A DNA stretch of 46,905 nucleotides, taken from the IMG/VR virus record IMGVR_UViG_3300017605_000804, positions 1 to 46,905 of that record, one strand, 5' to 3'. A model generated the notes under the pieces. It was not told the DNA's origin. It searched no databases and saw only the letters and a list, made by a program, of their open reading frames with translations. Within the stretch, counting starts at the first letter, position 1. Every line of letters begins with the position of its first letter. This stretch comes from a virus. Below, in pieces: positions 17,805 to 46,211 of this stretch. A program made the position numbers and the translations under genes.

Positions 17805-19361
17805 ATGTCGCGACCCCCGAAGAAGCGTCCTATCTCCGTCCCGGTCACCCAGGGCAAGGACGGCAACGGCCACCTCACGGGCAGGTGGAACGCCTACGTG
17901 CCGATAAAGGACGCTTACGGGAACCCAGTCAGATACGCCAGCGGGCGACCCAAAAGCAAGCACATCGAGAAGCGATCGCAGGAAGAGTGTGAGGACGCGG
18001 TCCGCGCGTTTGAGGACGAACAGGCCGCAGCGATCGCTCGGCGGGCCGCCGGCGTCGCGCCTTCGGTGAAGAAGCCCAAGCGGCTGCACGAGTGGATCCG
18101 ATACTGGGTGTATGAGATCAAGTTCCCGAAGGTGTCCCACAACATGTTCAAGGACTACCGGGACACGGCAGAGAAGCTGATCCTCCCCAACATTGACGAC
18201 TGCGACCTGCCCGACATGGAGTCCGAGGCGATCGACCTGATGCTCAAGCGAATCCGGCGTGCGGATCCGAAGTCCACGGACAAGCCGAACCGCGCCTACC
18301 GGCACCTGCGCATGCAGCTCAAGGCCGCGGTCGCCCGTGCGAAGGAGACCGGACTGTTCTGGAACCCGGCCGAGGCGGTCGACGTCCCCGAGCACGAGTC
18401 ACCCGAGGTGACCCCGTTCACGGTCGAAGAGGCCAAGCTCGTGATGACCTCCGCGCGGCGGCGGCGCAACCCCGCGCGCTGGACGGTCGGCTCCGCGCTC
18501 GGGCTACGGCCGGGGGAGGCACTGGCCATGATGGACGAGGACTTCCGGATCATCGACCGCCAGACTAAGGCGATCATTCCGCAAGAGCGGTGGGACACCG
18601 TCGACCTGGACGAGGTCGTCGGGCTGCTGCGCGTCAAAGAGAACCTGTTCCGGCGAGCGTGGCAGCACGGATGCAAGGACCCGGCCAACTGCCCCGGCGC
18701 CAAGCACAAGCGGCCCTGCTCGGGCAAAGGCCGGGCGCATCTGCGCTACCACCGCAACGGCTGCCCAGACCGCAGCCCGTACTGCGAACCGGGTTGCGCC
18801 AGCCACGCACGCATGTGCCCGGCCCGGCACGGCGGCATCGGACCGGACGGACGGCCGCTGCCTGGCGGTCGTGTGCGCAAGGCGCCGAAGTCGAAGGCGG
18901 GCAAGCGGACCATCGTCCTGTTCCGGGAGATGACGGCCGAGCTGATCGCGCACTTCAAGCAGAAGGACAAGGAGCGGCAGGCGGCCGGCGAGTTGTGGGT
19001 GGAGACCGGTGCGCTGTTCGCCACCGCTGAGGGCCGGGTGATCCTGGAGCACGACGACTGGGAGGAGGCCAAGGCGATCCTCGCCGAGGCCGGGCTGCCC
19101 GACGCCCGACCGTACGACTCACGCCACACTGCGGCGACGCTGCTGTTGCTCAAGGGTGTGCAGAAGCGCCTCGTGATGGACGCCTTGGGGTGGTCGTCGG
19201 AGGCGATGTTGAAGCGCTATCAGCACATCCTCGACGAGATGCGCAGCGAGGTCGCCGACGCCATCGGAGGGCTGCTGTACGATTCTGCAACGGATCTTGC
19301 AACGGACCCGCCGCCGGACAACGTTGTGGAACTCGATTCGGTCCGCAAAAAGGCCGCATGA
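17805..19361 (+). CDS. tyrosine integrase
   Basis: 518 residues. Catalytic positions read as Arg235 (GLRPGEAL), Lys364/367 (SKAGKRT), the RHT box with Arg440 (YDSRHTAAT, Tyr437 where many family members have His), Trp463 and the nucleophile Tyr472 (RYQHI). Between 288 and 340 there is an insert with seven cysteines (290, 296, 305, 320, 327, 331, 338) and several His, like the probable zinc-binding insert of some actinobacterial integrases. AAGGAG precedes the ATG. attP lies directly downstream. Confidence 0.95.
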   Translation: MSRPPKKRPISVPVTQGKDGNGHLTGRWNAYVPIKDAYGNPVRYASGRPKSKHIEKRSQEECEDAVRAFEDEQAAAIARRAAGVAPSVKKPKRLHEWIRYWVYEIKFPKVSHNMFKDYRDTAEKLILPNIDDCDLPDMESEAIDLMLKRIRRADPKSTDKPNRAYRHLRMQLKAAVARAKETGLFWNPAEAVDVPEHESPEVTPFTVEEAKLVMTSARRRRNPARWTVGSALGLRPGEALAMMDEDFRIIDRQTKAIIPQERWDTVDLDEVVGLLRVKENLFRRAWQHGCKDPANCPGAKHKRPCSGKGRAHLRYHRNGCPDRSPYCEPGCASHARMCPARHGGIGPDGRPLPGGRVRKAPKSKAGKRTIVLFREMTAELIAHFKQKDKERQAAGELWVETGALFATAEGRVILEHDDWEEAKAILAEAGLPDARPYDSRHTAATLLLLKGVQKRLVMDALGWSSEAMLKRYQHILDEMRSEVADAIGGLLYDSATDLATDPPPDNVVELDSVRKKAA

Positions 19362-23429: not shown

Positions 23430-23460
23430 CGGTGACTCAGTCCGAAGACCTCGACCCCCG

Positions 23461-23532
23461 CGCGTCAGGATGGACTCGAACCACCGTCCTCCCGCCGAGA
23501 GGCGGGTGCTCTATCCGCTGAGCTACCAACGC
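23461..23532 (-). tRNA. tRNA (Arg-like body) with 6-nt anticodon loop
   Basis: A full 72-base cloverleaf: acceptor GCGTTGG/CTGACGC (with G-U pairs), GCTC/GAGC D stem with loop AGCGGATA, and a T arm GGTGG-TTCGAGT-CCATC. The anticodon stem CCCGC/GCGGG encloses only CTCTCG, six bases instead of seven. Body and discriminator G resemble tRNA-Arg. With U33 as second loop base the anticodon would read CUC. One lost base from a CUUCUCG or CUCCUCG loop would explain it (UCU or CCU, Arg). CCA is not encoded. It may be defective or specialised. Confidence 0.8.
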
Positions 23533-34131: not shown

Positions 34132-34868
34132 CAGCTCGTCACCCGCCCCTCATGCTTGAGCGCGGCCACGGCAGCGGTCTCGATCGTGAACCGGCCGAAC
34201 TGGTTGGCACGCCACGCGTCGTACGCCATCCGGTCGACTTCGTATCGATCTTCTGAATTGGACTCCCTGTAGGAGGCATCCCACGACGCCTTGCCCGCCA
34301 ACGGATGCACATGCTCGACAATCACGTCCGGGCGGTAGGCGATCCGGCCCGCGGCCCGGCCCAACTCGAGCACCGCCGCGTCGACATACATGTGCGCACA
34401 GCAGGGCAGCATCATCCATCCCACCGCGCGGACGATCTCCGCCGAGACGACCCACGCTGTGGGCATGTTCTTATCTTGGAACAGGTCACGGCCGTAGGCG
34501 AAGCCGGGACCGTCCATGGCCTCGATCGCCTCGATGAGCTTGCGGTCCCACCCCTTGGTGCGCGGCCGGTGGTCATCGCCAAGGCTCGCCAGGTACCGCG
34601 GCGGTGCCTCCGTGTTGGATGCCAGCGCCGCCAACGCAAGCGTGTTCGTCCACGCGCACAGCGACTGCCGAGGCCCGACCACATACCGGTATGGCGCGTC
34701 CGCCTCGTAGTCGGGCAGCGCCGGGTCGTCGTGGTCGAGGCCGGCCACCACAGCCACGTCGCCCAACGCGGTGGAGTGGACGGCCTCGACCATCTCCCGC
34801 AACCGCGCCGCACGGCCACGAGAGGGAGTGATGACAATGAGTTCAGCGATGTCCTTCGCGTCAGCCAT
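34131..34868 (-). CDS. actinophage glycosyltransferase
   Basis: 245 residues. ELIVITPSRGRAARLREMVE, then LDHDDPALPDYEAD, ASLGDDHRPRTKGWDRKLIE and MYVDAAVLELGRAAGRIAYR correspond to GT-A glycosyltransferases of actinophage structural operons. The SLGDDH segment holds the acidic metal-binding motif. With the neighbouring fusion it probably decorates virion proteins with sugar. Start 34868 overlaps the fusion's stop. Confidence 0.8.
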   Translation of the reverse strand: MADAKDIAELIVITPSRGRAARLREMVEAVHSTALGDVAVVAGLDHDDPALPDYEADAPYRYVVGPRQSLCAWTNTLALAALASNTEAPPRYLASLGDDHRPRTKGWDRKLIEAIEAMDGPGFAYGRDLFQDKNMPTAWVVSAEIVRAVGWMMLPCCAHMYVDAAVLELGRAAGRIAYRPDVIVEHVHPLAGKASWDASYRESNSEDRYEVDRMAYDAWRANQFGRFTIETAAVAALKHEGRVTS

Positions 34869-36198
34869 TGCGCACCCACCAACCACTCGGGTGGTGCGAG
34901 ATCGGGGACATGCGCTCGATCGCGATATCACGCGACCAGCCCGGTTTGCCGTCAAGCTCTTCGGCGATCGCGTCCAGCGGCGAGCCGACCTGCCCAGGAA
35001 TGTGCATGGCCCGCAGTTGTGGTGGGGCGTAGCCGAAAAGACCGTCCTCCACCACGAGATAGCAGCCCGGCGTCACGAGCGGCGCGTAAAGCTCAATCTC
35101 CTTGGAGACGTGGGCCGCGGAGTGGTCCGAGTCCAGCACCACCATGCAACGGCGGCCATCGACGACGCGTGCTATGCGAGCAACGATCTCGGGACTGGCG
35201 CTGTCGCCAACTATCGCAATGACGCCTTCACGCAGCGTCTCCTTCAGGTCTTCATCTGTGGACACATCAACGGTAATCACCTGGTCGCACTGCTCCGCGA
35301 ACCATCGTGCTGATGCGCCAACGCGGGTGCCGGTCTCGACGATCACCTCGGGCTTGGTCGCGTCGATGATCTGCCGATACCGCTCGAGATCCTGCGGCAT
35401 CTTCAGCATACCGTCGTCGCGCACATGCGCGTTCGCGGCAAGGCTTTCCAGCGACTGCCCGATATCGATGTGCACAGACAAGTCCGGGATCCGGACCGTT
35501 AACGCCAGCTGCGCTTCATAGTCCTCTTCGGACAGCCAGTTGTCTTTGTGGTGTGTGGTCTTCACGCCGGTGTGCACCGCAGGGATGATGCCCGCCTTGA
35601 GCAACCGGCCGCAGAAGGCGATGTCCTCACCGACGATGTCGCCGACCTGGTCGTACATCATGTCGAACCAGTGATCGCCGACGTCCGCGCGGACCTTCTC
35701 CAACGCGCTGCGGTGAATCAGCAGGAACGCCCCGCCAGTCGCGGCGACCGGGGTGACGGTGTTGTCCTCGTAGTCGCCGAAGTAGCAGAACGAAGGGCTG
35801 CCGTCGGCGGTGGTGCCCATCTTGTACATCGTCGGCACGATCGTGCGCCGCCAGCCGCCCATGCCGTCATGGCCGGCGACCATCGACGCGAAACACAACG
35901 CCCCCACCACGGGCCGCTCCGCCGGGTCCGCGACAGCCAACAGCCGATGTACGGAGTCGGGTGCGAAACCCATGTCGGTGTCGATGAACAGCAGCCACTC
36001 GTGGTCGGTCTTGTCCAGGAACAGGCGGGCGGCACCGTTGCGGACGTGGGCGACCATTGCCACGCCGCAGCGCATGTTCATCGGCTTACGGGCCAACACT
36101 TGGCCGTGGTCGAGGTCGTATTCGAGCATGCCGCGCATCGACTCGACCCACGAGTGGGAGACGTGTTCGTTGTGCAGGTAGGCGATCTGGACTGTCAT
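34861..36198 (-). CDS. glycosyltransferase-methyltransferase fusion
   Basis: 445 residues. The N-terminal domain (1-235) is a GT-A glycosyltransferase: IAYLHNEHVSHSWVESM, FIDTDMGF with DxD at 73-75 and GEDIAFCGRLLKAG near 190. The C-terminal domain (about 265-440) is a CmcI-like SAM methyltransferase: EVIVETGTRVGASARWFAEQ (288-300), VITVDVSTD, VVLDSDHSAAHV and GCYLVVEDG. Two activities in one chain suggest transfer of a sugar and its methylation. Located right after the capsid gene, so virion proteins are the likely acceptors. Confidence 0.8.
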   Translation of the reverse strand: MTVQIAYLHNEHVSHSWVESMRGMLEYDLDHGQVLARKPMNMRCGVAMVAHVRNGAARLFLDKTDHEWLLFIDTDMGFAPDSVHRLLAVADPAERPVVGALCFASMVAGHDGMGGWRRTIVPTMYKMGTTADGSPSFCYFGDYEDNTVTPVAATGGAFLLIHRSALEKVRADVGDHWFDMMYDQVGDIVGEDIAFCGRLLKAGIIPAVHTGVKTTHHKDNWLSEEDYEAQLALTVRIPDLSVHIDIGQSLESLAANAHVRDDGMLKMPQDLERYRQIIDATKPEVIVETGTRVGASARWFAEQCDQVITVDVSTDEDLKETLREGVIAIVGDSASPEIVARIARVVDGRRCMVVLDSDHSAAHVSKEIELYAPLVTPGCYLVVEDGLFGYAPPQLRAMHIPGQVGSPLDAIAEELDGKPGWSRDIAIERMSPISHHPSGWWVRNG

Positions 36199-36213
36199 GT
36201 GCAGCCTTTCTCT

Positions 36214-36268
36214 TGGGAGGGAATCCGTCCCGTCGGCGCGACGTCCCTCCCAGGCGCGCACCGACGGG
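36214..36268 (-). promoter_or_regulatory. interleaved inverted repeats (possible pseudoknot)
   Basis: Two perfect stems interleave in the gap before the glycosyltransferase fusion: TGGGAGGGA (36214-36222)/TCCCTCCCA (36244-36252) and CCCGTCGG (36229-36236)/CCGACGGG (36261-36268). The A-B-A'-B' order is that of an H-type pseudoknot or of two alternative hairpins. It could set the ratio of capsid to glycosyltransferase expression. Confidence 0.6.
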
Positions 36269-36281
36269 AACGGACGTTGTG

Positions 36282-37661
36282 TCAGCTGCCCGAGTAGGTG
36301 ATTTTTGTGACAGCCTTCGGGCGACGCCCGAACGTGACGGCCTCATAGCCCCACACGCCGACCCTGACAAGCGCCGGACCGGCAGGCTGCTCGAACTGGA
36401 ACTGCATCGGCGGGCTGATGGAGAACAGGTGCTCCTGGCTGTTGACGATGAACCCGGTCGACGCCCCAACGGTCGGCGAGGTCACCGCGAGCAGGTTCTC
36501 CAACGTGCCCTGCACCACGGAGCGGAACCCTTGCGTGGCACCGCCTTCGCCGATCGCGTTCTGCGGACCGTAGCTTTGCGCCAGGATCAGCGGCCGGCCC
36601 GTGGTGTCGGCGAACTTGAGGTAGGTCGTCCACCGCGAGGTGCGGCCGACGAAGATGTCCGCGTCACCGGCCGGAGCGTCGGAGATCGCCGCGATACCGT
36701 CGAGGAGACCGGCACGCTGCAACGCGATGTCGGTCGTGGTGAGCACACCCGCGGACACGGTCACCGCGTTGACGCCCGCTTGCGCGTTGAGCGCAGCGAT
36801 CACCTCAAGCTCGGCGTTGTCGTAGAAGTCGCCCATCATGTCGCCCCACACGACCGAGTCCACGGTCGGGTTCGACGCCTCGAGCAGCTGCCGAGAGATC
36901 TCGGAATAGCCCATGATCGCCTTGGGGGTGACGGTCAGGATGTTGTACGTCGGGTCGGTCTCGGTGGTGTTGACACCCTCAGCAACCGTCGACGTCTTGG
37001 CCGCGGTGGAAGCCACCGGGATCGACCAGGCGAACGGCCCCGCCCACGGCACCTGCCGCAGCATCGAAGCCAGCCGCAGCTTGCGGTGCAGGATCGGCGC
37101 GAACTGCTCGGCCAACCACACCGGAGGAACGAGGCCGGCACCGAAAGTGGTAGCGCCCGCGCCGAGGACGTCACGCAGGTGCTGGTTGTCGCGCAACGCG
37201 TTGGTGTGCCGCTGCAACCGTGCGGCCGCCTCGGTGTCGCCCATTTTCGCGGAACGGAACTGGTCGGCGACGAACGAGTGCTGTCCGCCGCGGGTGTAGA
37301 GGCCGGGGTCACGGTCCTGGGTGCGGGCGCCGCCAAGCGAACGGATCTGGCTGGCGGTCCCGTTGCCGTCGCCGGCGTCGCCGTCGTCGGTGTTGCCTTC
37401 CGGCTCGCCGCCGTTCATCGCGGCCGCAACCTTGGCGTTCATCGCCGCGACGGAGGCGTTGCGGAGCTCGATCTCCGACAGGTCCTCGATCTGGCCGTAG
37501 ATGCCTTTGGCCTTCTCGCCCATCTCGATGACGGAGCGGAGTTCCTCCGGGGTCAGGTCACGCTTGGCCTCGGCGGCACGTGACTGGAGACCTTCGATGC
37601 TCGACTTGAGCGAGCCGTACTGGGTGCGAAGATTCGCAAGATAGGGGTTTTCGGATGCCAC
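36282..37661 (-). CDS. HK97-type major capsid protein
   Basis: 459 residues from GTG 37661 (GGGAG upstream). An N-terminal helical scaffold-like delta region (about 1-120, coiled coil then a Gly/Asp linker) precedes the capsid fold: AGLVPPVWLAEQFAPILHRK, then IMGYSEISRQLLEASNPTVD (spine helix region) and a C-terminal VWGYEAVTFGRRPKAVTKI. The delta domain would be removed by the protease encoded upstream. Confidence 0.95.
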   Translation of the reverse strand: MASENPYLANLRTQYGSLKSSIEGLQSRAAEAKRDLTPEELRSVIEMGEKAKGIYGQIEDLSEIELRNASVAAMNAKVAAAMNGGEPEGNTDDGDAGDGNGTASQIRSLGGARTQDRDPGLYTRGGQHSFVADQFRSAKMGDTEAAARLQRHTNALRDNQHLRDVLGAGATTFGAGLVPPVWLAEQFAPILHRKLRLASMLRQVPWAGPFAWSIPVASTAAKTSTVAEGVNTTETDPTYNILTVTPKAIMGYSEISRQLLEASNPTVDSVVWGDMMGDFYDNAELEVIAALNAQAGVNAVTVSAGVLTTTDIALQRAGLLDGIAAISDAPAGDADIFVGRTSRWTTYLKFADTTGRPLILAQSYGPQNAIGEGGATQGFRSVVQGTLENLLAVTSPTVGASTGFIVNSQEHLFSISPPMQFQFEQPAGPALVRVGVWGYEAVTFGRRPKAVTKITYSGS

Positions 37662-37821
37662 GACAACCACTCCCGTGGGTCACAAGGATTTGCCGCTCCG
37701 AGTGACCGGGGTGTCCGCGTGGCAGAGGCGGGGGTGTCGGCATCCGTGGGAGTGGCCGGGGTGTCCGCGTGCTTCAGAGGCGGGGGTGTCGGTGTCCAGC
37801 TATCTGATGCCTGCCACGGTA
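37662..37821. repeat. 50-bp imperfect tandem duplication upstream of capsid gene
   Basis: Two ~50-bp units (37700-37749 and 37750-37800), each with two GGGGTGTC-type motifs, giving four copies starting at 37708, 37731, 37758 and 37783. No gene fits. On the minus strand TTGATA (37820-37825) and TAGCTG (37797-37802) are 17 bp apart and could be a weak capsid promoter just ahead of the repeats. Confidence 0.7.
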
Positions 37822-38073: not shown

Positions 38074-38807
38074 ACCGCCCCCAAAGCCTCGAACGCGGCG
38101 CCGGTCCGGTCGAGCCAGGGGCCGCGGCGGCGCCTGTCGAACTCGGGCCGTAGCGCCTCGATGGCGGGGCGGATCGCGTCGAGGAATGCCCGCTCCGCAT
38201 CGGACGGTATGACGGTGGCGGACCGCCATGCGCTGGGGAAGCCGAGGGGTATCAGCTGGTCGCCGTCGATCGCCCACTCACCCGGGTGCCGTGCCGCGGT
38301 GCCGGTGAGGCCGTCGACGGTGCGTAGCCGTCTGCCGGCATCGGAGCGATCGAGGAGGGCGGACTGCGCCCAGCCGGCAAGCTCCGCGTCGGTGAACTCG
38401 CGCGACGGTACCGCGAACCGGTCCAGGATCGCCCGTAGCTCGGCGGCGGGCACATCCGGCAGGTCGATACCCAACAGGCTGTCGTCGGCGGGCAGGGCGG
38501 TGTACAGCTCCGAATCGGACGCCCGCAGAACCTCGGGCGCGGTGAGGCTGGCGGCGCGGGCGACCGCGGTTGCAAGCTCGTCGGCGTCGTGGTCTTCCAC
38601 GTCGCGCATCGACGTGGCCTTTCGGTAGAGCGCTTTGCGTCCGGTTTTGAAGGTGGCGCGGAGCAGGCTGCCCGCCACCTCGTCGAGCGTGGCGACCCCG
38701 GACGCGACATCGACCCGCAGCCCATGACCTGGCGTCGGGGCAGCAAGGAACGGCGCCGCACGCGCGCGCAGCGCATCGTCGTCGAGCCGGTCCAGGCGAT
38801 GGGTCAT
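38070..38807 (-). CDS. hypothetical head-region protein, 245 aa
   Basis: MTHRLDRLDDDALRARAAPF; mainly helical with a Pro-rich middle and a WRSATVIPSDAERAFLDAIR C-terminal part. Located between protease and capsid, where scaffold or accessory head proteins lie. No family recognised. Confidence 0.6.
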   Translation of the reverse strand: MTHRLDRLDDDALRARAAPFLAAPTPGHGLRVDVASGVATLDEVAGSLLRATFKTGRKALYRKATSMRDVEDHDADELATAVARAASLTAPEVLRASDSELYTALPADDSLLGIDLPDVPAAELRAILDRFAVPSREFTDAELAGWAQSALLDRSDAGRRLRTVDGLTGTAARHPGEWAIDGDQLIPLGFPSAWRSATVIPSDAERAFLDAIRPAIEALRPEFDRRRRGPWLDRTGAAFEALGAV

Positions 38808-39451
38808 CGGATGGGCATGCCCAGACGCAGCTGCCGCATCGCGAGACTGTGGTCGACCGGGTCAGGTAGCCCGCCGAGGAATTCCTCCGCCTGCCGCCGC
38901 AAATCCATCTCCGCGTTGTTGAGCACGACCGGGTCGCCGAACTGCCCCGCCGACCGGACACCCGCCGTCGCGGCAAGATCCCCGTAGGCGCCCTGCAAGA
39001 CCGAGGCAACCTCGTTCAGGTGCGCCTTGACCCGCTGCATAACTCCGCCCGCCACGCGCCGGTTCTGCCGCTCGTTGAACCAGATCGACAGGTCCCGAAG
39101 CGCGCCGTCCTTGACCAACTCCAACGTCTCATCACCGGCAGGTGTCCGTGACGCACGCATCTCCACATATAGGCCGGCCGCGTCGTCGCGCATGGCGGAC
39201 AGGGCGCCGATCAACGTCCCGCCCAAGAGGAGGTGTTCACGGGCGTACTTCACCCGCTGCGGTGCGTTGATCTGCGCGTCGAACGCACCGCGGACGAACT
39301 CCTCAACGAGGTCATCGCGGATCCGGGTCGGTGCGTTGTACGGCACGGCGATGCCGTAGATGGTGCGCCCGTCACCGCCCGCCTTAACCTCGAGGTCGGG
39401 CCTGTATGACCGGAAGTGGCCGTCGGTCGGGGCGATCGTCGGGGCGGTCAT
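38804..39451 (-). CDS. prohead protease (HK97 gp4/S78-like)
   Basis: 215 residues. GRTIYGIAVPYNAPTRIRDD, EFVRGAFDAQI, AREHLLLGGTLIG (His73) and DGALRDLSIWFNERQ (Ser122) are the strand-helix features and catalytic His/Ser of S78 prohead proteases. It would cut the capsid delta domain during maturation. Confidence 0.9.
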   Translation of the reverse strand: MTAPTIAPTDGHFRSYRPDLEVKAGGDGRTIYGIAVPYNAPTRIRDDLVEEFVRGAFDAQINAPQRVKYAREHLLLGGTLIGALSAMRDDAAGLYVEMRASRTPAGDETLELVKDGALRDLSIWFNERQNRRVAGGVMQRVKAHLNEVASVLQGAYGDLAATAGVRSAGQFGDPVVLNNAEMDLRRQAEEFLGGLPDPVDHSLAMRQLRLGMPIR

Positions 39452-39687
39452 CGCTTGTTCCCCTGGGCGTCGTGGTGCATGGCGTGGTAGGAGCACACCT
39501 TGCCGTTGACGGCGTTACCGACGTGCATGCCCCGGCCGTCGTTGACAACACAGTCGCTGACGCGCGGCTGCTCTTCCTTCTTCGCCGGTGCCGTCTCCTT
39601 GGCCGGCGCGTCCTTCGTAGGCTCATCCTTGGCCGCGGGTGCCTTTGCCGGTGCCGCCTTCGTGGTGCTCTCTTCCTTCGTCGCCAT
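39448..39687 (-). CDS. small Lys/Ala/Pro-rich protein, 79 aa
   Basis: Disordered N-terminal half (KAPAAKDEPTKDAPAKE) and a short C-terminal piece with Cys46, Cys65 and several His. No family recognised. ATGA overlap with the protease gene. Confidence 0.55.
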   Translation of the reverse strand: MATKEESTTKAAPAKAPAAKDEPTKDAPAKETAPAKKEEQPRVSDCVVNDGRGMHVGNAVNGKVCSYHAMHHDAQGNKR

Positions 39688-39708: not shown

Positions 39709-39831
39709 CTAGTCCTGGTCGTCTGCTTCGTTGTCGGGCTCGACCTCATCGGGAGCGTCGATGGTCATGTATTCCTCGTCGGCGACGAGACGGTTCGCCG
39801 CCTCTTCGAGGATGTCGTCGGGCAAAGTCAT
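39709..39831 (-). CDS. small acidic protein, 40 aa
   Basis: MTLPDDILEEAANRLVADEE, ending DNEADDQD. GGAAGG lies upstream of the ATG and the start overlaps the 56-aa gene's stop. Very acidic; function unknown. Confidence 0.55.
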   Translation of the reverse strand: MTLPDDILEEAANRLVADEEYMTIDAPDEVEPDNEADDQD

Positions 39832-39998
39832 TCTTGCGTCCTTCCAAAATTGAGCACCGCGCGAGCCCAGTTCGGCAGGTCATCCACGGTGTTCGCCTTG
39901 CGTGCCGCCGCGAGCAGTTCGCCCATCTGCGGACCGTCCTCCTCAAGGTTGAGGATGGTCTTGATCTGGGCGCATGCGCGGGACATTTCGGGTGTCAT
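39828..39998 (-). CDS. small helical protein, 56 aa
   Basis: MTPEMSRACAQIKTILNLEE, ending ARAVLNFGRTQE. Both ends overlap neighbours by ATGA, which supports it. Function unknown. Confidence 0.6.
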   Translation of the reverse strand: MTPEMSRACAQIKTILNLEEDGPQMGELLAAARKANTVDDLPNWARAVLNFGRTQE

Positions 39999-42895
39999 GG
40001 TTGTGCTTCCTCAACAAGAGTGGCAGTTCGATTCAGGATCACATACTCGGTCTGGCCATCCAGCTTCGATCCTTTACCACGATAGTCACCGGGAATGTAG
40101 ATGGCGTCATAGCCGAGCAGCGCCGCCACCCGGCCGAGATCGCCAGCGATCTGGCTCCGCGGTCCTTGCCGTGCCGCGAGCGCCGCATACTTGTCGATGA
40201 TCGCTTTGATGGCCTTGGTGTCAGTTGGATCGACCTTGTCCAGCTCGGCCTGTCGCTGATCGGCCAGGTTTGCCGCAGTTGCCGTAATACCTGTTCGCGG
40301 CCGCAGCTTCAGCAAGTCAGCATACGAAATCACCCTAGCGTCGCGGCGCAACCCGATCCGCAGCATCGTCGCCTCTTCACCGTACCGTTTGGCGGTCTCA
40401 CGCTGCGGTGATGTGTACGTGCCCGACCCGTAGACGCCGTTGCCGGGAAACAGCGGACCAGTCCGGTATTCCTCATTGAGCTCCGCAGACTTCTTGTAAT
40501 GCAAAGACTTGACCGCACGGAACAGTTCGATCCCACCGTCACGGACATGCTCGTCCATCTCCCGCTTGGGTACCACCTTCGGCTTTCCGTTGAAGCCTTG
40601 AGCCTGCTGGACTGCGCCCAGCCAACGGTCTCCGCCACCGGTACCGTTGTAGCCGACGCCTTTCACCGCACCGTCATAGTCGAAGTCATCGACGATGGAG
40701 CGGCCCTTCACCACGCCTGGTTCGATCTGATGCGGAACAACTTCCATAACAGCGATCGGCGGTGACACGGACTCGTCGACACGGACAATGCGGTACTCCA
40801 TGTCGCGGCCACCGATCGCTTCCTTGACGCGCTCGTGGCCCAACGCCACATTGGTACCCGCAGGCGCGAGAATCTTGAACAGCATCGGCTTGCGCCCTTT
40901 GGGGATAGTGCCGTTGCGCTGCCGCCAGTCGATCGTCTGCCGAGCGCCCATCTCCTCAAAGGACATCGACTTGTATGCCGGATCGCTGTAGATCGCGCCC
41001 GGCACCAGCCGGCGGAAGTCGGCTTGCGATACCACGGCTCCACGCCACAGAACCGCGTCCTGCGTCAGCTTGCTGTCGGCAATCGCCGAGTCGAGATCAC
41101 GCGCAACTTGATCGAGGTCGATCGTTCCCACAGGGCCCTTGATCTCGCCGTGGACGTTTCGGCCCTTACGAAGCGAGCCGTTCACCCCATCGGCCACGAC
41201 ACCCACCGTGTACAAGTCCAACGCCCGGTTTTCGGCAACGGAAAGGCCAGGACGTAGCGGAGCCTTTGGGTTGCGGACCAGGTCTGTGCCCGATCCGCGG
41301 TGGGCGAAGTCGTCAGGCACCTTGGCACCACGGTGAATCAGGATGTCCCTGTACGGACGCGACCGGAAACGTCCCTCATCAACTTGCACCATTTCGCCCA
41401 GAGACGTCGCACCCAGCGTGACCGCACGTTTGGTGGGAGGCACCTTGGCTACTTCAGCCAGGTCGGCAAGTCGTTCGAGGTCGGCCGCTACGTCGAGCCC
41501 GTGGGCAATCATCATCTTGCGGTCGTGGACACGGTTCGGCTGTGCCCAGAATCCCTGCCCGGCGACCGCGCGGGCGTGCTCGTCTCGCTCGAACATGGCT
41601 GCCGCGCGAGCAAGCCGAATGGCTGTGGCCCGTGACGTAGGTTTCGACGGATTGCCGAGGTTCTCCCAGAACTTTCTGAACACTGGATCAAACGGGTTGT
41701 CGTCCCGGTATTGCATCAGCGCATGGCCGAACTGGGGCGGCTTGTCGTCCGGCATCCACCGCCGGACGTCGATTCCGTTGGCCTCACCCAGCTTGATGAG
41801 GTCGATGCGACCCTTATCGTTGATGTATGGCGGTATCTCCGTCTTCTTCTTCGTCAGGTCTGACGCCAGGAACCGCAACGTATCCGCATCCTCCTTGCGG
41901 CCGATGCTGTCGGCTTCCTTGCGCAGATGCTTGGCCACCGCCTTGCGGTCCTCGCCGTCGGCCAGCGCGGCGACCGCGCGCTCCAGCGGGCCGTTGTCGG
42001 CCGGTTCGCGGCGGCCCATGTTCTTCAACCGCTCAAGCAAGCCCTTGTACTCGTCGATACGTTTGAACTTCACGTCCGGCGCCACGGCGCCCAACGCGCG
42101 CAAGGCATCGATAATCTCGTCACGAGTTTTGTCAGTGTCCTTGGCCGCCTCGATGACGTCGTACTCGAGCGCGAGGGACCGGAGCCGATGAGCGTCGAGC
42201 TTGTCGAGACCGTCGTCCGGCCCGGTCGGCTTCGCCACCTTGCGCGCCTTCGCCGCGGCCTTCTTCGCCGGTGCCGGTGCCGGTGCCGCCGCCTTCTTCG
42301 CCGGCGCGACAGCCGCGGCCGGCTTCTTCGCCTTCGGGTCGAGGTGCGCCACCAGCTTCGCGGCAATCGAATCCTCGTCCTCGCCGCGGTCCAACTTGAT
42401 ACCGAGATCCCGCGCCGCCTTCACCAGCTGCGGACGCTTGAACAGATCGAACGGGTTGCGGTCCTTCTTCGGGTTGAACTCGGCGATCGCCTGCTGCAGC
42501 AGATCGAGCATCGGCCTGAACTTGCCCGCCAGCGGATGCGGCTTCAACCATCGCTTGTGCTTGCCCGGGTCGAACGCGCGCAGGTGCGGCCGCGTGAGCG
42601 TGATCTCATACAAGGCGGTGAACAGCACCAGCTCGAGCGTCTCGTCGTCCAGCTTCCGCAGCGCATCGACCGGGCGCGGCGGATCCGGCAGCCCACGCAG
42701 CACCGCGTTCGCCCGCTCCCGCAACCACGCATCCGATGTGACCGCGACCTCGCCCCAGCCTGACCGCACCTCGTTGTCGAACACATCCAATCCGGCGGAA
42801 TCATCCCCGTCGTCGTCGAGGGCGGGCAGCCGCGCCGCCTCCGCCGCGCGAAGCTGCAGCTCGTCATAGTCCAACTCCGCCAGCGACTTCATCAC
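39995..42895 (-). CDS. minor head protein with two ADP-ribosyltransferase-like domains
   Basis: 966 residues, directly after the portal. N-terminal helical head-protein-like part (1-190), a Lys/Ala/Pro linker (190-225), a helical middle (225-540), then two ART-like domains. Domain 1 (about 550-705): LWRG (Arg618), SMS (643-645) and DME (698-700), the R-S-E triad order. Domain 2 (about 787-962): LFRAV (Arg793), PGNGVYGSGTYTSP (817-830), LGYDAIYIPG and TEYVILNR (Glu950), also ART-like. Such proteins can be packaged and injected to modify host proteins with ADP-ribose. Start GTG 42895 or ATG 42892. Confidence 0.8.
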   Translation of the reverse strand: MMKSLAELDYDELQLRAAEAARLPALDDDGDDSAGLDVFDNEVRSGWGEVAVTSDAWLRERANAVLRGLPDPPRPVDALRKLDDETLELVLFTALYEITLTRPHLRAFDPGKHKRWLKPHPLAGKFRPMLDLLQQAIAEFNPKKDRNPFDLFKRPQLVKAARDLGIKLDRGEDEDSIAAKLVAHLDPKAKKPAAAVAPAKKAAAPAPAPAKKAAAKARKVAKPTGPDDGLDKLDAHRLRSLALEYDVIEAAKDTDKTRDEIIDALRALGAVAPDVKFKRIDEYKGLLERLKNMGRREPADNGPLERAVAALADGEDRKAVAKHLRKEADSIGRKEDADTLRFLASDLTKKKTEIPPYINDKGRIDLIKLGEANGIDVRRWMPDDKPPQFGHALMQYRDDNPFDPVFRKFWENLGNPSKPTSRATAIRLARAAAMFERDEHARAVAGQGFWAQPNRVHDRKMMIAHGLDVAADLERLADLAEVAKVPPTKRAVTLGATSLGEMVQVDEGRFRSRPYRDILIHRGAKVPDDFAHRGSGTDLVRNPKAPLRPGLSVAENRALDLYTVGVVADGVNGSLRKGRNVHGEIKGPVGTIDLDQVARDLDSAIADSKLTQDAVLWRGAVVSQADFRRLVPGAIYSDPAYKSMSFEEMGARQTIDWRQRNGTIPKGRKPMLFKILAPAGTNVALGHERVKEAIGGRDMEYRIVRVDESVSPPIAVMEVVPHQIEPGVVKGRSIVDDFDYDGAVKGVGYNGTGGGDRWLGAVQQAQGFNGKPKVVPKREMDEHVRDGGIELFRAVKSLHYKKSAELNEEYRTGPLFPGNGVYGSGTYTSPQRETAKRYGEEATMLRIGLRRDARVISYADLLKLRPRTGITATAANLADQRQAELDKVDPTDTKAIKAIIDKYAALAARQGPRSQIAGDLGRVAALLGYDAIYIPGDYRGKGSKLDGQTEYVILNRTATLVEEAQP

Positions 42896-44082
42896 AGCCC
42901 GCCGCCGTACTCGTAGCCGTCCTCTTCCGCCATAGGCATCGGCGGCCGGTGCTCATACTCACGCACCTCATCCACCGTCAAGAAAGGCTTACCACCCAAC
43001 GCGATCTGATGCGCCTGATACCTGGTGTAGGTGTCCGACTTCAACAGCGCGTCCAGGTTCGCACGCGCGCATGTCTGCGGCGGCAACGCCAACGTGAGCG
43101 TCTGCTCGAACTGGGCAACATCCGCACCAGGCCCGGGGAACTTCATCAGGTTCGCGACGTCCTGCTCAATGTTCGCGTACGTTCGCGAGCTGGTGGTGCC
43201 GCCCAGCCAGCCGACCGGCAGCTCGAAGATGAGCTCCAACTCGGTCAGCGTGAACTTGCGGGCCTCGACCATTTGCAGCTCTTCGGGATTCCACGACAGC
43301 GGCTGAAACTCGACAGTCGGGCCGAGGGCCGCGATGGTCCGGCTGGCTTGCGATTCCAGCCATGACGCCTTCGCCGCCTGCATGTCCTCCTTGGATGCGT
43401 CCGGGTTGTTGGTCCTCAGCACACCAGTCGGGACACCGTGCCGCGAAATCGACTGGGCCTGCTTCTGCTGCTCCGACGCCAGGTTCAAGGTGGACAGGTG
43501 CGCCTCGAGGACACCCAGCCCACGGACCGCGCCCGGCTCACCCGGCCGCTTGAAATGGATCACATCGCGGGAGCCGAGCCGCAGCCGGCCGATCGAATAC
43601 TCGAGTTCGCCCACCGGCAGCGGCGAATCCATGTACTCCGTGATGCGCCTGACGCCGGCCGACTGTGCCGGGACCGGCACCACCGCCGTCGGCCACCCGG
43701 TCCGGTCACGGGCGGCAACAAGCCACAGGCCGTTGCCGTGCCAGATGTAGTCCAAGGCGGTCGACGCGAATGTGGTCAGCCGGGTGTCGGGCGGGTTCGG
43801 CTGCTCGAGCAGCGGCGGCGTAGGGGTGATCAACACCTCTGGCTGGCGTGGCACCTTCCGGTAGCCGAACCACGGCAGCATTCCCAGCACGCCTGAACGG
43901 AACGTCGCGGCCCGCCACGCCCCGGGGATTTGCATCGCCCCGCGGTACGCGCTCGAGGTCGCCCAGTCCGGACCCAAATTGTCGGTGATGAAATAGTTGG
44001 CGGTCGCGTTGGTGATGGTGTCCTTCACGGTGATCTGCGTCGACCGTGTCTCCCCGCCCGCCACGAGCCGCCCGAGCCCCAT
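42892..44082 (-). CDS. HK97-type portal protein
   Basis: 396 residues. TGWPTAVVPVPAQSAGVRRI, DVIHFKRPGEPGAVRGLGVL, ISRHGVPTGVLRTN, ELELIFELPVGWLGG and a C-terminal LTVDEVREYEHRPPMP are the standard blocks of HK97 portals. It forms the DNA channel at one capsid vertex. TAATG overlap with the 81-aa gene. Confidence 0.9.
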   Translation of the reverse strand: MGLGRLVAGGETRSTQITVKDTITNATANYFITDNLGPDWATSSAYRGAMQIPGAWRAATFRSGVLGMLPWFGYRKVPRQPEVLITPTPPLLEQPNPPDTRLTTFASTALDYIWHGNGLWLVAARDRTGWPTAVVPVPAQSAGVRRITEYMDSPLPVGELEYSIGRLRLGSRDVIHFKRPGEPGAVRGLGVLEAHLSTLNLASEQQKQAQSISRHGVPTGVLRTNNPDASKEDMQAAKASWLESQASRTIAALGPTVEFQPLSWNPEELQMVEARKFTLTELELIFELPVGWLGGTTSSRTYANIEQDVANLMKFPGPGADVAQFEQTLTLALPPQTCARANLDALLKSDTYTRYQAHQIALGGKPFLTVDEVREYEHRPPMPMAEEDGYEYGGGL

Positions 44083-44690: not shown

Positions 44691-46211
44691 CTAGACCACC
44701 CAGGGCTTCTGCAGAGCCTTCGGCTTCGGCCGGGCCAGCCACAGATGCGACCCCAGCCGGGCGTTCGTCACCGTCACCACCGGGCCGATGTTCACCGTCG
44801 ACAACTTCCGCGCCCACCCAATCTGGCCATGCTCGCCGACCTTCGCCTGCACATTCGGGATCGCCAAATCCAGCGGCTCCTGACCGACATGCCGCAGCGG
44901 CGACGCCGGCTTCCGGTTGAACACATCAATGAACTGCCCGACCGCATCCGACACCAGCTGCCCGTCGAGCAACAGCAGCCCACCCCGCGGAATCTCCGGC
45001 ACCTTCGCCTCGTCCTCGACCCGGCCGGTCAGCGCCTTCACCGCCGCCACATCCAGCACCCGGATTCCCTTGCCCGCCAACTGATCCAGGAACGCGTGCA
45101 CCCCGTTACGTTTGTCGATCACCCACAGCACCGGGTCCAACGCCTCATGCAAAATGCCGGCCCGGTCGACCATCCAATCCACATCCGGGGCGTAGTCGAC
45201 AACCCGCACCAGCTCCAGCCCATCGGCCCGCCAGCCGTGCACACCGATCGTCCCGTACTCCCGCATCGGCGTCATATCCAGCGACAACACCACATCAGAG
45301 CCCGGCGCAAGCCGCGACGTCACATCAAGCATCGTCTTCCACTTCGACGGCGACAGCGCGGCGTTCGCCGCCAACTCCGGCCAGATCCCCATGCACTCCG
45401 TCTGGAACTTCTCATCGCCAAGGATCTTCCGCAGGTGCCGCAGCCGCTCAAGGCTGATGCGGATCCCGAGCCCAGGATTCGCCTTCGCCAGCGCCACCAG
45501 GTCGTCGAGGTCGGCGCCTTTGTCGACACCCCACTCCACATACGACAGACCGCTGTCGCCCTCCTGCGCCCGGGCGCGGACGGTGCAAAGATGCTGGTCA
45601 CCGAACTGCGGAACCGTGCTGAAATACCAGAGCTGCGCGAAGTCGCGTGCCAGCAACGTCGGCACCAGCGAGGCGATCTGCTCCGGGTTGAGCTCAAGCG
45701 ACTCGTCCAGGATGACGAGGTCGCCGGTGAGACCGCGGCCGCCTGCGGCAGTTCTGGTCTTGAACTCGACGGTGGCCCCGGTCAGCAGGGTGATCGAAAA
45801 GTCTGAGTCGTTGATCGGCCTGCATCGGCGCGCCAAGTCCGGCGTGGACTCGACCAGCGCCCGGACACGGGAGAACGTCGACTGAGCGGTGTCCAACCGG
45901 TGCGCGGCGTAGATCGTCTTCGCGTTGCCCCACACGAACAGCGACGCCAGGATCAGCGCCTCGATCACCGCGCCCTTGCCGTTCTGCCGCTGGACAATGA
46001 CCGTGTTCTCGAAGCTGGCCCAGTTCAGGTCTGCGCGCAGCCCGCAGCCGTTGCGGATGCAGCCTTCCTGCCACTCGTCGAGCTTCCCGCCGGCCGCCTC
46101 GTAGATGTCGATCGCATCCTGCGCCCGGCTCGAGGTCATCGACGGCGTGAGCACGAACCGCGGTGGCACGTCCCCGAAGTCGACAGGCGCGTCGAGGACG
46201 GCGGTACTCAT
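44691..46211 (-). CDS. terminase large subunit
   Basis: 506 residues. The ATPase has a phage-type Walker A (RQNGKGA, 75-81) and Walker B (VILDE, 166-170). A C-terminal nuclease follows, with VVLSLDMTPMREYGTIGVH near 305 and LWVIDKRNGVHAFL. It drives DNA packaging and cuts concatemers. Preceded by the small subunit, followed by the portal. Confidence 0.95.
   Translation of the reverse strand: MSTAVLDAPVDFGDVPPRFVLTPSMTSSRAQDAIDIYEAAGGKLDEWQEGCIRNGCGLRADLNWASFENTVIVQRQNGKGAVIEALILASLFVWGNAKTIYAAHRLDTAQSTFSRVRALVESTPDLARRCRPINDSDFSITLLTGATVEFKTRTAAGGRGLTGDLVILDESLELNPEQIASLVPTLLARDFAQLWYFSTVPQFGDQHLCTVRARAQEGDSGLSYVEWGVDKGADLDDLVALAKANPGLGIRISLERLRHLRKILGDEKFQTECMGIWPELAANAALSPSKWKTMLDVTSRLAPGSDVVLSLDMTPMREYGTIGVHGWRADGLELVRVVDYAPDVDWMVDRAGILHEALDPVLWVIDKRNGVHAFLDQLAGKGIRVLDVAAVKALTGRVEDEAKVPEIPRGGLLLLDGQLVSDAVGQFIDVFNRKPASPLRHVGQEPLDLAIPNVQAKVGEHGQIGWARKLSTVNIGPVVTVTNARLGSHLWLARPKPKALQKPWVV

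What the first reader, a model, noticed from the sequence alone, without database searches (positions are those of the whole stretch)
39995..42895. Virion head protein carrying two tandem ADP-ribosyltransferase-like domains
The gene after the portal encodes 966 residues with an R-S-E-type ART (LWRG...SMS...DME) and a second, different ART-like domain (LFRAV...GVYGSGTYTS...TEYVILNR). A helical head-protein part and a flexible Lys/Ala/Pro linker precede them. From T4 Alt it is established that head-packaged ARTs are injected and modify host proteins. Two distinct ARTs on one minor head protein suggest a dual-target injected effector. Here the middle of the triad is intact, while the ExE motif is DxE.
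Basis: partly seen in the sequence, partly recalled or inferred. Interest (0 to 1): 0.8.

Follow-up and report, generated by a model that had tools for sequence, protein, structure and literature searches.

The report
Phage head protein with two ARTs

Summary
The gene is real: 39995-42892 (-), 965 codons from the ATG that overlaps the portal stop. A 951-aa homologue is 67% identical. Domain 1 (about residues 510-722) is an R-S-E ART by profile (Vis toxin, E 7e-5; relatives hit PF03496) and by predicted fold. Three comparisons place the catalytic Glu at E692, invariant in six relatives, with V or A two residues before it, so there is no ExE or DxE. Domain 2 (about 752-966) belongs to a widespread phage ART-like family. 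Relatives of both domains are fused to MuF/VG15, and domain 2 also to portal proteins, or lie directly after portals of several families. Head location is therefore well supported indirectly, although this protein's own N-terminus has no recognisable MuF or portal domain. Head-packaged ART effectors and multi-ART 'polyvalent' proteins are published; related loci here carry two or more. Verdict: a new variant of a known kind; the 'dual-target injected effector' is plausible but unproven.

The parts
42647..42724 (-). residues 58-83, LRERANAVLRGLPDPPRPVDALRKLD: resembles the C-terminal tail of the phage's own prohead protease; possible encapsidation signal (a lead only)
   Evidence: score 46, 0 of 500 shuffles reach it; weak in L001; not seen in other loci
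42212..42334 (-). Lys/Ala/Pro-rich flexible linker, residues 188-228, between two helix-loop-helix pairs that look like Rho_N/HeH motifs
   Evidence: pLDDT about 30; Rho_N/HeH found by Pfam only in the related proteins of L005 and L011
41396..42055 (-). conserved all-helical region, residues 281-500, shared with multi-ART proteins of L005 and L009 and in part L010 and L011
40730..41368 (-). domain 1: R-S-E type ART, residues about 510-722
41042..41044 (-). R618 (LWRG), invariant in 6 of 6
40961..40969 (-). S643-M-S645, the S-T-S position (STS in L005 and L009, STA in L010 and L011, ATS in L001)
40820..40822 (-). E692, predicted catalytic Glu of domain 1 (first residue of a predicted strand); residue two before it is V690
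40796..40804 (-).
39998..40642 (-). domain 2: PARP/diphtheria-like ART-like domain, residues 752-966
40517..40519 (-). R793 (LFRAV), invariant in 44 of 44
40415..40438 (-). GVYGSGTY 820-827: family motif GxYGNGTY; Y827 in 44 of 44
40106..40108 (-). D930 (GYDAI), invariant in 44 of 44
40046..40054 (-). Q948-T-E950: QxE-like here; E in only 7 of 44 aligned sequences
40028..40033 (-). N955-R956 (LNR), invariant in 44 of 44
42892..44082 (-). portal protein (PF04860, 2.6e-39), directly upstream, TGATG overlap
44691..46211 (-). large terminase
39828..39998 (-). 56-aa ORF coupled to the ART stop by an ATGA overlap; conserved in L001 (6907-7077); possible partner, function unknown
38804..39496 (-). 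prohead protease (Peptidase_S78, 2.8e-10)
36282..37670 (-). HK97-type major capsid protein (PF05065)

Best explanation
This is a post-portal minor head protein of a temperate, probably actinobacterial, siphovirus-like phage. Its C-terminal half carries two ART domains of different classes. Most likely it is built into or packed in the procapsid through its helical N-terminal half, and enters the host with the DNA. There at least one of the two domains uses NAD to modify host or defence components early in infection. Domain 1 is an R-S-E ART (R618, S643-M-S645, E692) that, with all its family, lacks the acid or Gln two residues before the catalytic Glu. Domain 2 is a PARP/diphtheria-like ART-like domain (R793, Y827, possibly Q948-T-E950, and D930/N955/R956). 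Shown: gene, domain families, predicted fold of domain 1, conservation pattern, synteny, and fusions in relatives. Inferred: presence in the virion, injection, catalysis, targets.
For: Domain 1: profile hit to Vis ART (7e-5); PF03496 in 5 of 6 members, best 1.7e-8, and over the gathering cut-off in L010; predicted model at mean pLDDT 82 whose 50 listed PDB matches are all ARTs, beginning at E 7e-8; hhalign 96.8% to canonical ARTs of sister proteins. Domain 2: 97 relatives in viral contigs; invariant R, GxGxYxNGTY-type motif and LNR; weak hits of members to ART-PolyVal, PARP and the AcrIF11 ART; hhalign E 7e-5 to R-S-E ARTs over the R and GTYTS region. Head context: portal directly upstream here; domain-2 relatives directly after PF04860, PF05133 and PF06074 portals, fused to Phage_Mu_F in 4 and to a portal in 3 of 9 domain-2 proteins scanned, and matching PHROG 'minor head protein' in 19 of 44; domain 1 fused to VG15 (MuF-like) in L010. 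Precedent: T4 Alt and polyvalent or MuF-ART proteins (PMC5512222, PMC9503650).
Against: No MuF, portal or other head domain is detectable in this protein's N-terminal half; the N-terminal model is poor (pLDDT 63) and matches nothing. Domain 1 lacks the ExE/QxE first residue throughout its family, and L001 has lost the first Ser of STS. The Glu of domain 2 is absent in most relatives. No virion proteomics and no enzymology.
Confidence: 0.6

Rival explanations
1. One domain is the enzyme and the other is a dead ART fold reused as an adaptor or target-binding module, as in binary toxins of the VIP2/iota type, where an N-terminal ART-like domain is non-catalytic (general knowledge).
For: Both domains deviate from consensus at catalytic positions: no acid two before E692, ATS in L001, E950 not conserved in the family. 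VIP2, CDTa and Ia, two-ART proteins, are among the PDB matches.
Against: R618, E692, R793, Y827 and D930 are invariant across relatives, which is unexpected for domains long freed from catalysis. In the window, domain 2 has a complete R...Y...QxE set.
Confidence: 0.25
2. Both domains are structural relics: the protein is a plain minor head or assembly protein whose ART folds no longer bind NAD.
For: Catalytic deviations in both families. PMC5512222 reports an inactive effector domain in Mu gp30.
Against: Invariant R/E and R/Y/D/NR positions; the same domains recur in many unrelated head-protein scaffolds next to other enzymes, e.g. NUDIX in L005 and L033.
Confidence: 0.12
3. The protein acts in the producing cell (late-stage host or capsid modification, or protection of packaging) rather than being injected.
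For: Encoded in the head operon. PMC9503650 names an alternative of this sort for ARTs in packaging neighbourhoods.
Against: Relatives are covalently part of MuF or portal proteins, which are virion components.
Confidence: 0.1

Closest known systems
Polyvalent phage/plasmid proteins (Iyer et al. 2017, PMC5512222)
   Same: large head-locus phage protein with several effector domains, ARTs in more than one copy; sister proteins here add NUDIX, zinc-peptidase-like (HExxH) regions and further ARTs
   Different: the typical ART of that class is H-Y-D; here an R-S-E ART is joined to an R-Y type. [quoted passage not shown]
T4 Alt (head-packaged, injected R-S-E ART)
   Same: ART encoded with head genes; domain 1 is of the R-S-E class
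   Different: two different ARTs, no ExE in domain 1, position directly after the portal; no sequence match to Alt found here
MuF-ART and portal-ART fusions of phages (PHROG 16619/4611 'minor head protein'; PMC9503650)
   Same: domain 2 is the C-terminal domain of such proteins
   Different: the window protein has neither a MuF nor a portal domain
Gordonia phage Phendrix/GodonK gp66/gp67
   Same: domain-2 relative in a large protein encoded directly after the portal
   Different: no domain 1; 37% identity over 92 residues; the Glu of the window's TEYVILNR is not kept
AcrIF11 anti-CRISPR ART
   Same: 4 of 44 domain-2 members match weakly (best 0.013); diphtheria-like fold with an acidic residue on a conserved loop (PMC12421852)
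   Different: AcrIF11 residues are H-F-H-D; below any meaningful cut-off; a lead only

Membership tests
R-S-E ARTs (PF03496 / Alt-VIP2-C3 class), domain 1 | profile match over the curated cut-off | tested here: inconclusive
   window domain 15.9 bits against cut-off 23.4; relatives reach 1.7e-8 and L010 28.3 bits
R-S-E ARTs (PF03496 / Alt-VIP2-C3 class), domain 1 | ART fold | tested here: met
   pLDDT mostly 80-94 over the domain; 105 PDB matches at E <= 1e-3, the 50 listed all ARTs, best 6.6e-8; profile hit to Vis 7e-5
R-S-E ARTs (PF03496 / Alt-VIP2-C3 class), domain 1 | Arg in first strand | tested here: met
   R618 invariant 6/6
R-S-E ARTs (PF03496 / Alt-VIP2-C3 class), domain 1 | S-T-S motif | tested here: inconclusive
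   SMS in window; STS, STA, ATS in relatives
R-S-E ARTs (PF03496 / Alt-VIP2-C3 class), domain 1 | catalytic Glu with Glu/Gln two residues before (ExE or QxE) | tested here: not met
   E692 present and invariant, but V690 (V/A in all six)
R-S-E ARTs (PF03496 / Alt-VIP2-C3 class), domain 1 | NAD-dependent transferase activity | not testable with these tools
   none
ART superfamily, PARP/diphtheria-like side, domain 2 | ART fold | tested here: inconclusive
   hhalign E 7e-5, 62% to ARTs; weak Pfam/NCBIfam ART hits; modelled strand order fits, but domain 2 was not fold-searched on its own
ART superfamily, PARP/diphtheria-like side, domain 2 | H/R in strand 1, Tyr in the GxGxY motif | tested here: met
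   R793 and Y827 44/44
ART superfamily, PARP/diphtheria-like side, domain 2 | catalytic acid at the start of the late strand | tested here: inconclusive
   E950 in the window, 7/44 in the family; 35/44 have D/E in the four residues up to that column
Polyvalent head-packaged proteins | two or more effector domains in one polypeptide at a portal-terminase head locus | tested here: met
MuF-type minor head proteins | Phage_Mu_F / VG15 domain | tested here: not met
   none in the window protein; present in relatives
Virion-packaged injected effector | protein present in virions and delivered | not testable with these tools
   none

The most novel reading that the evidence does not exclude
Domain 1 founds a head-delivered ART subfamily that works without the ExE/QxE acid and so modifies an unusual acceptor. 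It is paired with an R-Y type ART in one molecule, and the protein enters the procapsid through a copy of the prohead protease's C-terminal tail rather than through a MuF or portal domain.
Probability: 0.1. Interest if true: 0.65.

Novelty: new variant of a known kind. Interest (0 to 1): 0.42.

Why it matters
It adds a compact example, and several giant ones, of head-associated proteins that combine ART domains of different classes. This extends published surveys, which keep R-S-E ARTs apart from genuine polyvalent proteins. The corrected active-site register (E692; V690 instead of an acid) changes which loss-of-function mutants one should make and which acceptor one should expect. The domain-2 alignment gives a clear signature (R...GxYGNGTY...GYDAI...LNR) for a large phage family that Pfam barely detects. 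If the protease-tail resemblance is real, it would be a simple way to send cargo into an HK97-type procapsid.

Tried and rejected
Single-sequence PDB search of the whole protein: only chance hits. Pfam/PHROG on the N-terminal half: nothing. N-terminal structure: poor model, no fold match. Genome contigs with the domain-1 alignment: no relatives in the sequenced bacterial or archaeal genomes held, so domain 1 of this kind is known here only from viral contigs. ART-PolyVal in sister records: none over threshold, controls silent too, so uninformative. Direct profile comparison of domain 2 with domain 1: no signal; they are not recent duplicates. Protease-tail resemblance: strong in the window (0 of 500 shuffles), weak in L001 (69 of 500), no counterpart in 19 other loci; another chance-looking tail match of similar score exists in L001. 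It is kept as a lead only. A protease-based scan found only L001 and one distant relative, so the test could not be extended. Domain-1 triad with DxE as proposed: rejected.

Full report
What the gene is. The window is a 46,905-base IMG/VR virus record with 67% G+C. Its head genes run on the minus strand: large terminase 44691-46211, a 90-aa ORF, portal 42892-44082, the gene in question 39995-42892, three small ORFs, prohead protease 38804-39496, a 245-aa ORF and an HK97-type capsid protein 36282-37670. The terminase is about 30% identical to those of Mycobacterium, Gordonia, Rhodococcus and Arthrobacter phages, and an integrase lies at 17805-19358 (+). The phage is thus probably temperate with an actinobacterial host; no close named relative was found. 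The ORF has two possible starts. The ATG at 42892, in a TGATG overlap with the portal stop, agrees with the start of the homologue in L001. The frame is real: the L001 protein is 67% identical over its whole length, with third codon positions changing most (0.47 against 0.24 and 0.19).

Domain 1. On its own the window sequence reaches only a sub-threshold PF03496 match. Relatives found by scanning viral contigs (L001/L004, L005 = L006-L008, L009, L010, L011) settle it. PF03496 is matched by 5 of 6 members, best 1.7e-8, over the gathering score in L010. The six-sequence profile finds the solved arginine ART Vis at 7e-5 and, more weakly, ExoT and ExoS. The predicted structure is good over this domain, and the 50 best PDB matches listed are all ARTs, the best at E 7e-8.

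The active site of domain 1 was misread. In the six relatives those columns are D/G, M/Q/R/S and E/Q/D/R, i.e. free to vary, while E692 is the same in all. The profile alignment to Vis puts E692 on the second Glu of Vis's EAE. A profile comparison with canonical ARTs inside the sister proteins (96.8% probability) puts E692 on the conserved Glu of their (E or N)-x-E motif. In the model E692 opens one strand, and DME sits at the start of the next. Two residues before E692 stands V690 (V or A in all six), so the acid or Gln of ExE/QxE is missing throughout the family. The S-T-S position is SMS here and STS, STA or ATS in relatives. From established knowledge of ARTs, such a site can be expected to bind and perhaps hydrolyse NAD, with acceptor specificity unknown.

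Domain 2. A scan with the first alignment returned 97 relatives in viral contigs. Members match ART-PolyVal (4), PARP (1) and the AcrIF11 ART (4) weakly. The profile aligns with R-S-E ARTs over the Arg strand and the GTYTS strand (E 7e-5). The G-x-G-x-Y motif recalls PARPs (general knowledge). I take it as an ART-like domain of the PARP/diphtheria side with R instead of H in strand 1. Direct fold search of this domain alone was not possible. The window copy has Q948-T-E950, so it could be active even though much of its family lacks that Glu. Domains 1 and 2 show no direct profile similarity, so this is not a recent duplication.

Where the protein sits. None of the libraries recognises the N-terminal 500 residues, and their model is poor. 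The evidence for a head protein is therefore indirect, but it is consistent. Among ten domain-1 or domain-2 relatives scanned, four proteins have Phage_Mu_F, three have a portal domain and one has VG15 in the same chain. Others are encoded directly after portals of the PF04860, PF05133 and PF06074 families. PHROG 'minor head protein' families match 19 and 8 of 44 members of the two-domain alignment. Gordonia phage Phendrix gp66, directly after its portal, carries a remote copy. Sister proteins are larger: L005 (2368 aa) has two PF03496 stretches, NUDIX and domain 2; L009 two PF03496 stretches plus domain 2; L011 three PF03496 stretches.

A lead on packaging. Residues 58-83 of the protein resemble, without gaps, the C-terminal tail of the same phage's prohead protease (score 46; 0 of 500 shuffles reach it), and a pattern derived from the pair occurs nowhere else in the six frames. 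I recall, without having been able to read it, that C-terminal fragments of the HK97 protease direct fusions into proheads (Duda, Oh and Hendrix 2013; the title is confirmed). The match is weak in L001 and was not reproduced in other loci, so it stays a lead.

What is known. Polyvalent proteins, with several ARTs and other effectors on one head-locus protein, were described in 2017, with up to 12 ART copies (PMC5512222). A 2022 survey reports Alt/VIP2 and N4-type ARTs fused to MuF, and about 44% of phage ARTs in head-packaging contexts (PMC9503650). BFVD holds phage proteins whose predicted structures match the two-domain model over 435-548 alignment columns. The window protein is therefore a new variant of a known kind. 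What is unusual is an R-S-E ART without ExE, joined to an R-Y type ART, on a post-portal protein without MuF or portal.

How it most likely works. Encapsidation, injection with the DNA, and early NAD-dependent modification of host or defence components by at least one domain is the best inference by analogy to T4 Alt and to the fusions above. None of these steps is shown here. The dual-target claim needs separate assays of the two domains.

Noticed in passing
window 39828-39998 (-); L001 6907-7077: A 56-aa ORF is coupled to the ART gene by an ATGA overlap and conserved in L001; candidate chaperone, inhibitor or regulator of the ART protein, no family match.
   Followed up: partly
window 39709-39831 and 39448-39687 (-): Two more small conserved ORFs between the ART gene and the protease: a 40-aa acidic one, and a 79-aa one with a Lys/Ala/Pro-rich N-terminus and a conserved C-terminal end.
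   Followed up: no
window 42647-42724 and 38825-38902 (-): Ungapped 26-residue resemblance between the ART protein's N-terminal part and the prohead protease's C-terminal tail; possible shared encapsidation signal.
   Followed up: partly
window 34861-36261 (-): ORF downstream of the capsid gene joins a phage glycosyltransferase-like part to a CmcI-type methyltransferase (PF04989, 5.7e-32), unusual inside a head operon.
   Followed up: no
L005 2163-9269 (same in L006-L008): 2368-aa protein with several ART domains, a NUDIX domain, the window's domain 1 and domain 2, and an HPRGxxGRFxxK motif near the N-terminus; identical translation in four contigs.
   Followed up: partly
L010 3676-7632: VG15 (MuF-like) minor head protein fused to an HExxH peptidase-like region and to domain 1, directly after an SPP1-type portal.
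   Followed up: partly
L033, L086, L025: Portal protein and domain 2 in one polypeptide; L033 also has a NUDIX domain between them.
   Followed up: partly
L032 3315-5069 and 7782-8540: Two separate proteins in one phage appear to end in domain-2 type sequences.
   Followed up: no
L003, L005, L011, L032, L053: Short N-terminal motif HPR(D/G)xxGRFxxK recurs in post-portal effector proteins or their neighbours of unrelated phages; possibly a shared head-binding signal.
   Followed up: no
window 23460-23532 (-): ARAGORN reports a tRNA-like gene with an undetermined two-base anticodon.
   Followed up: no
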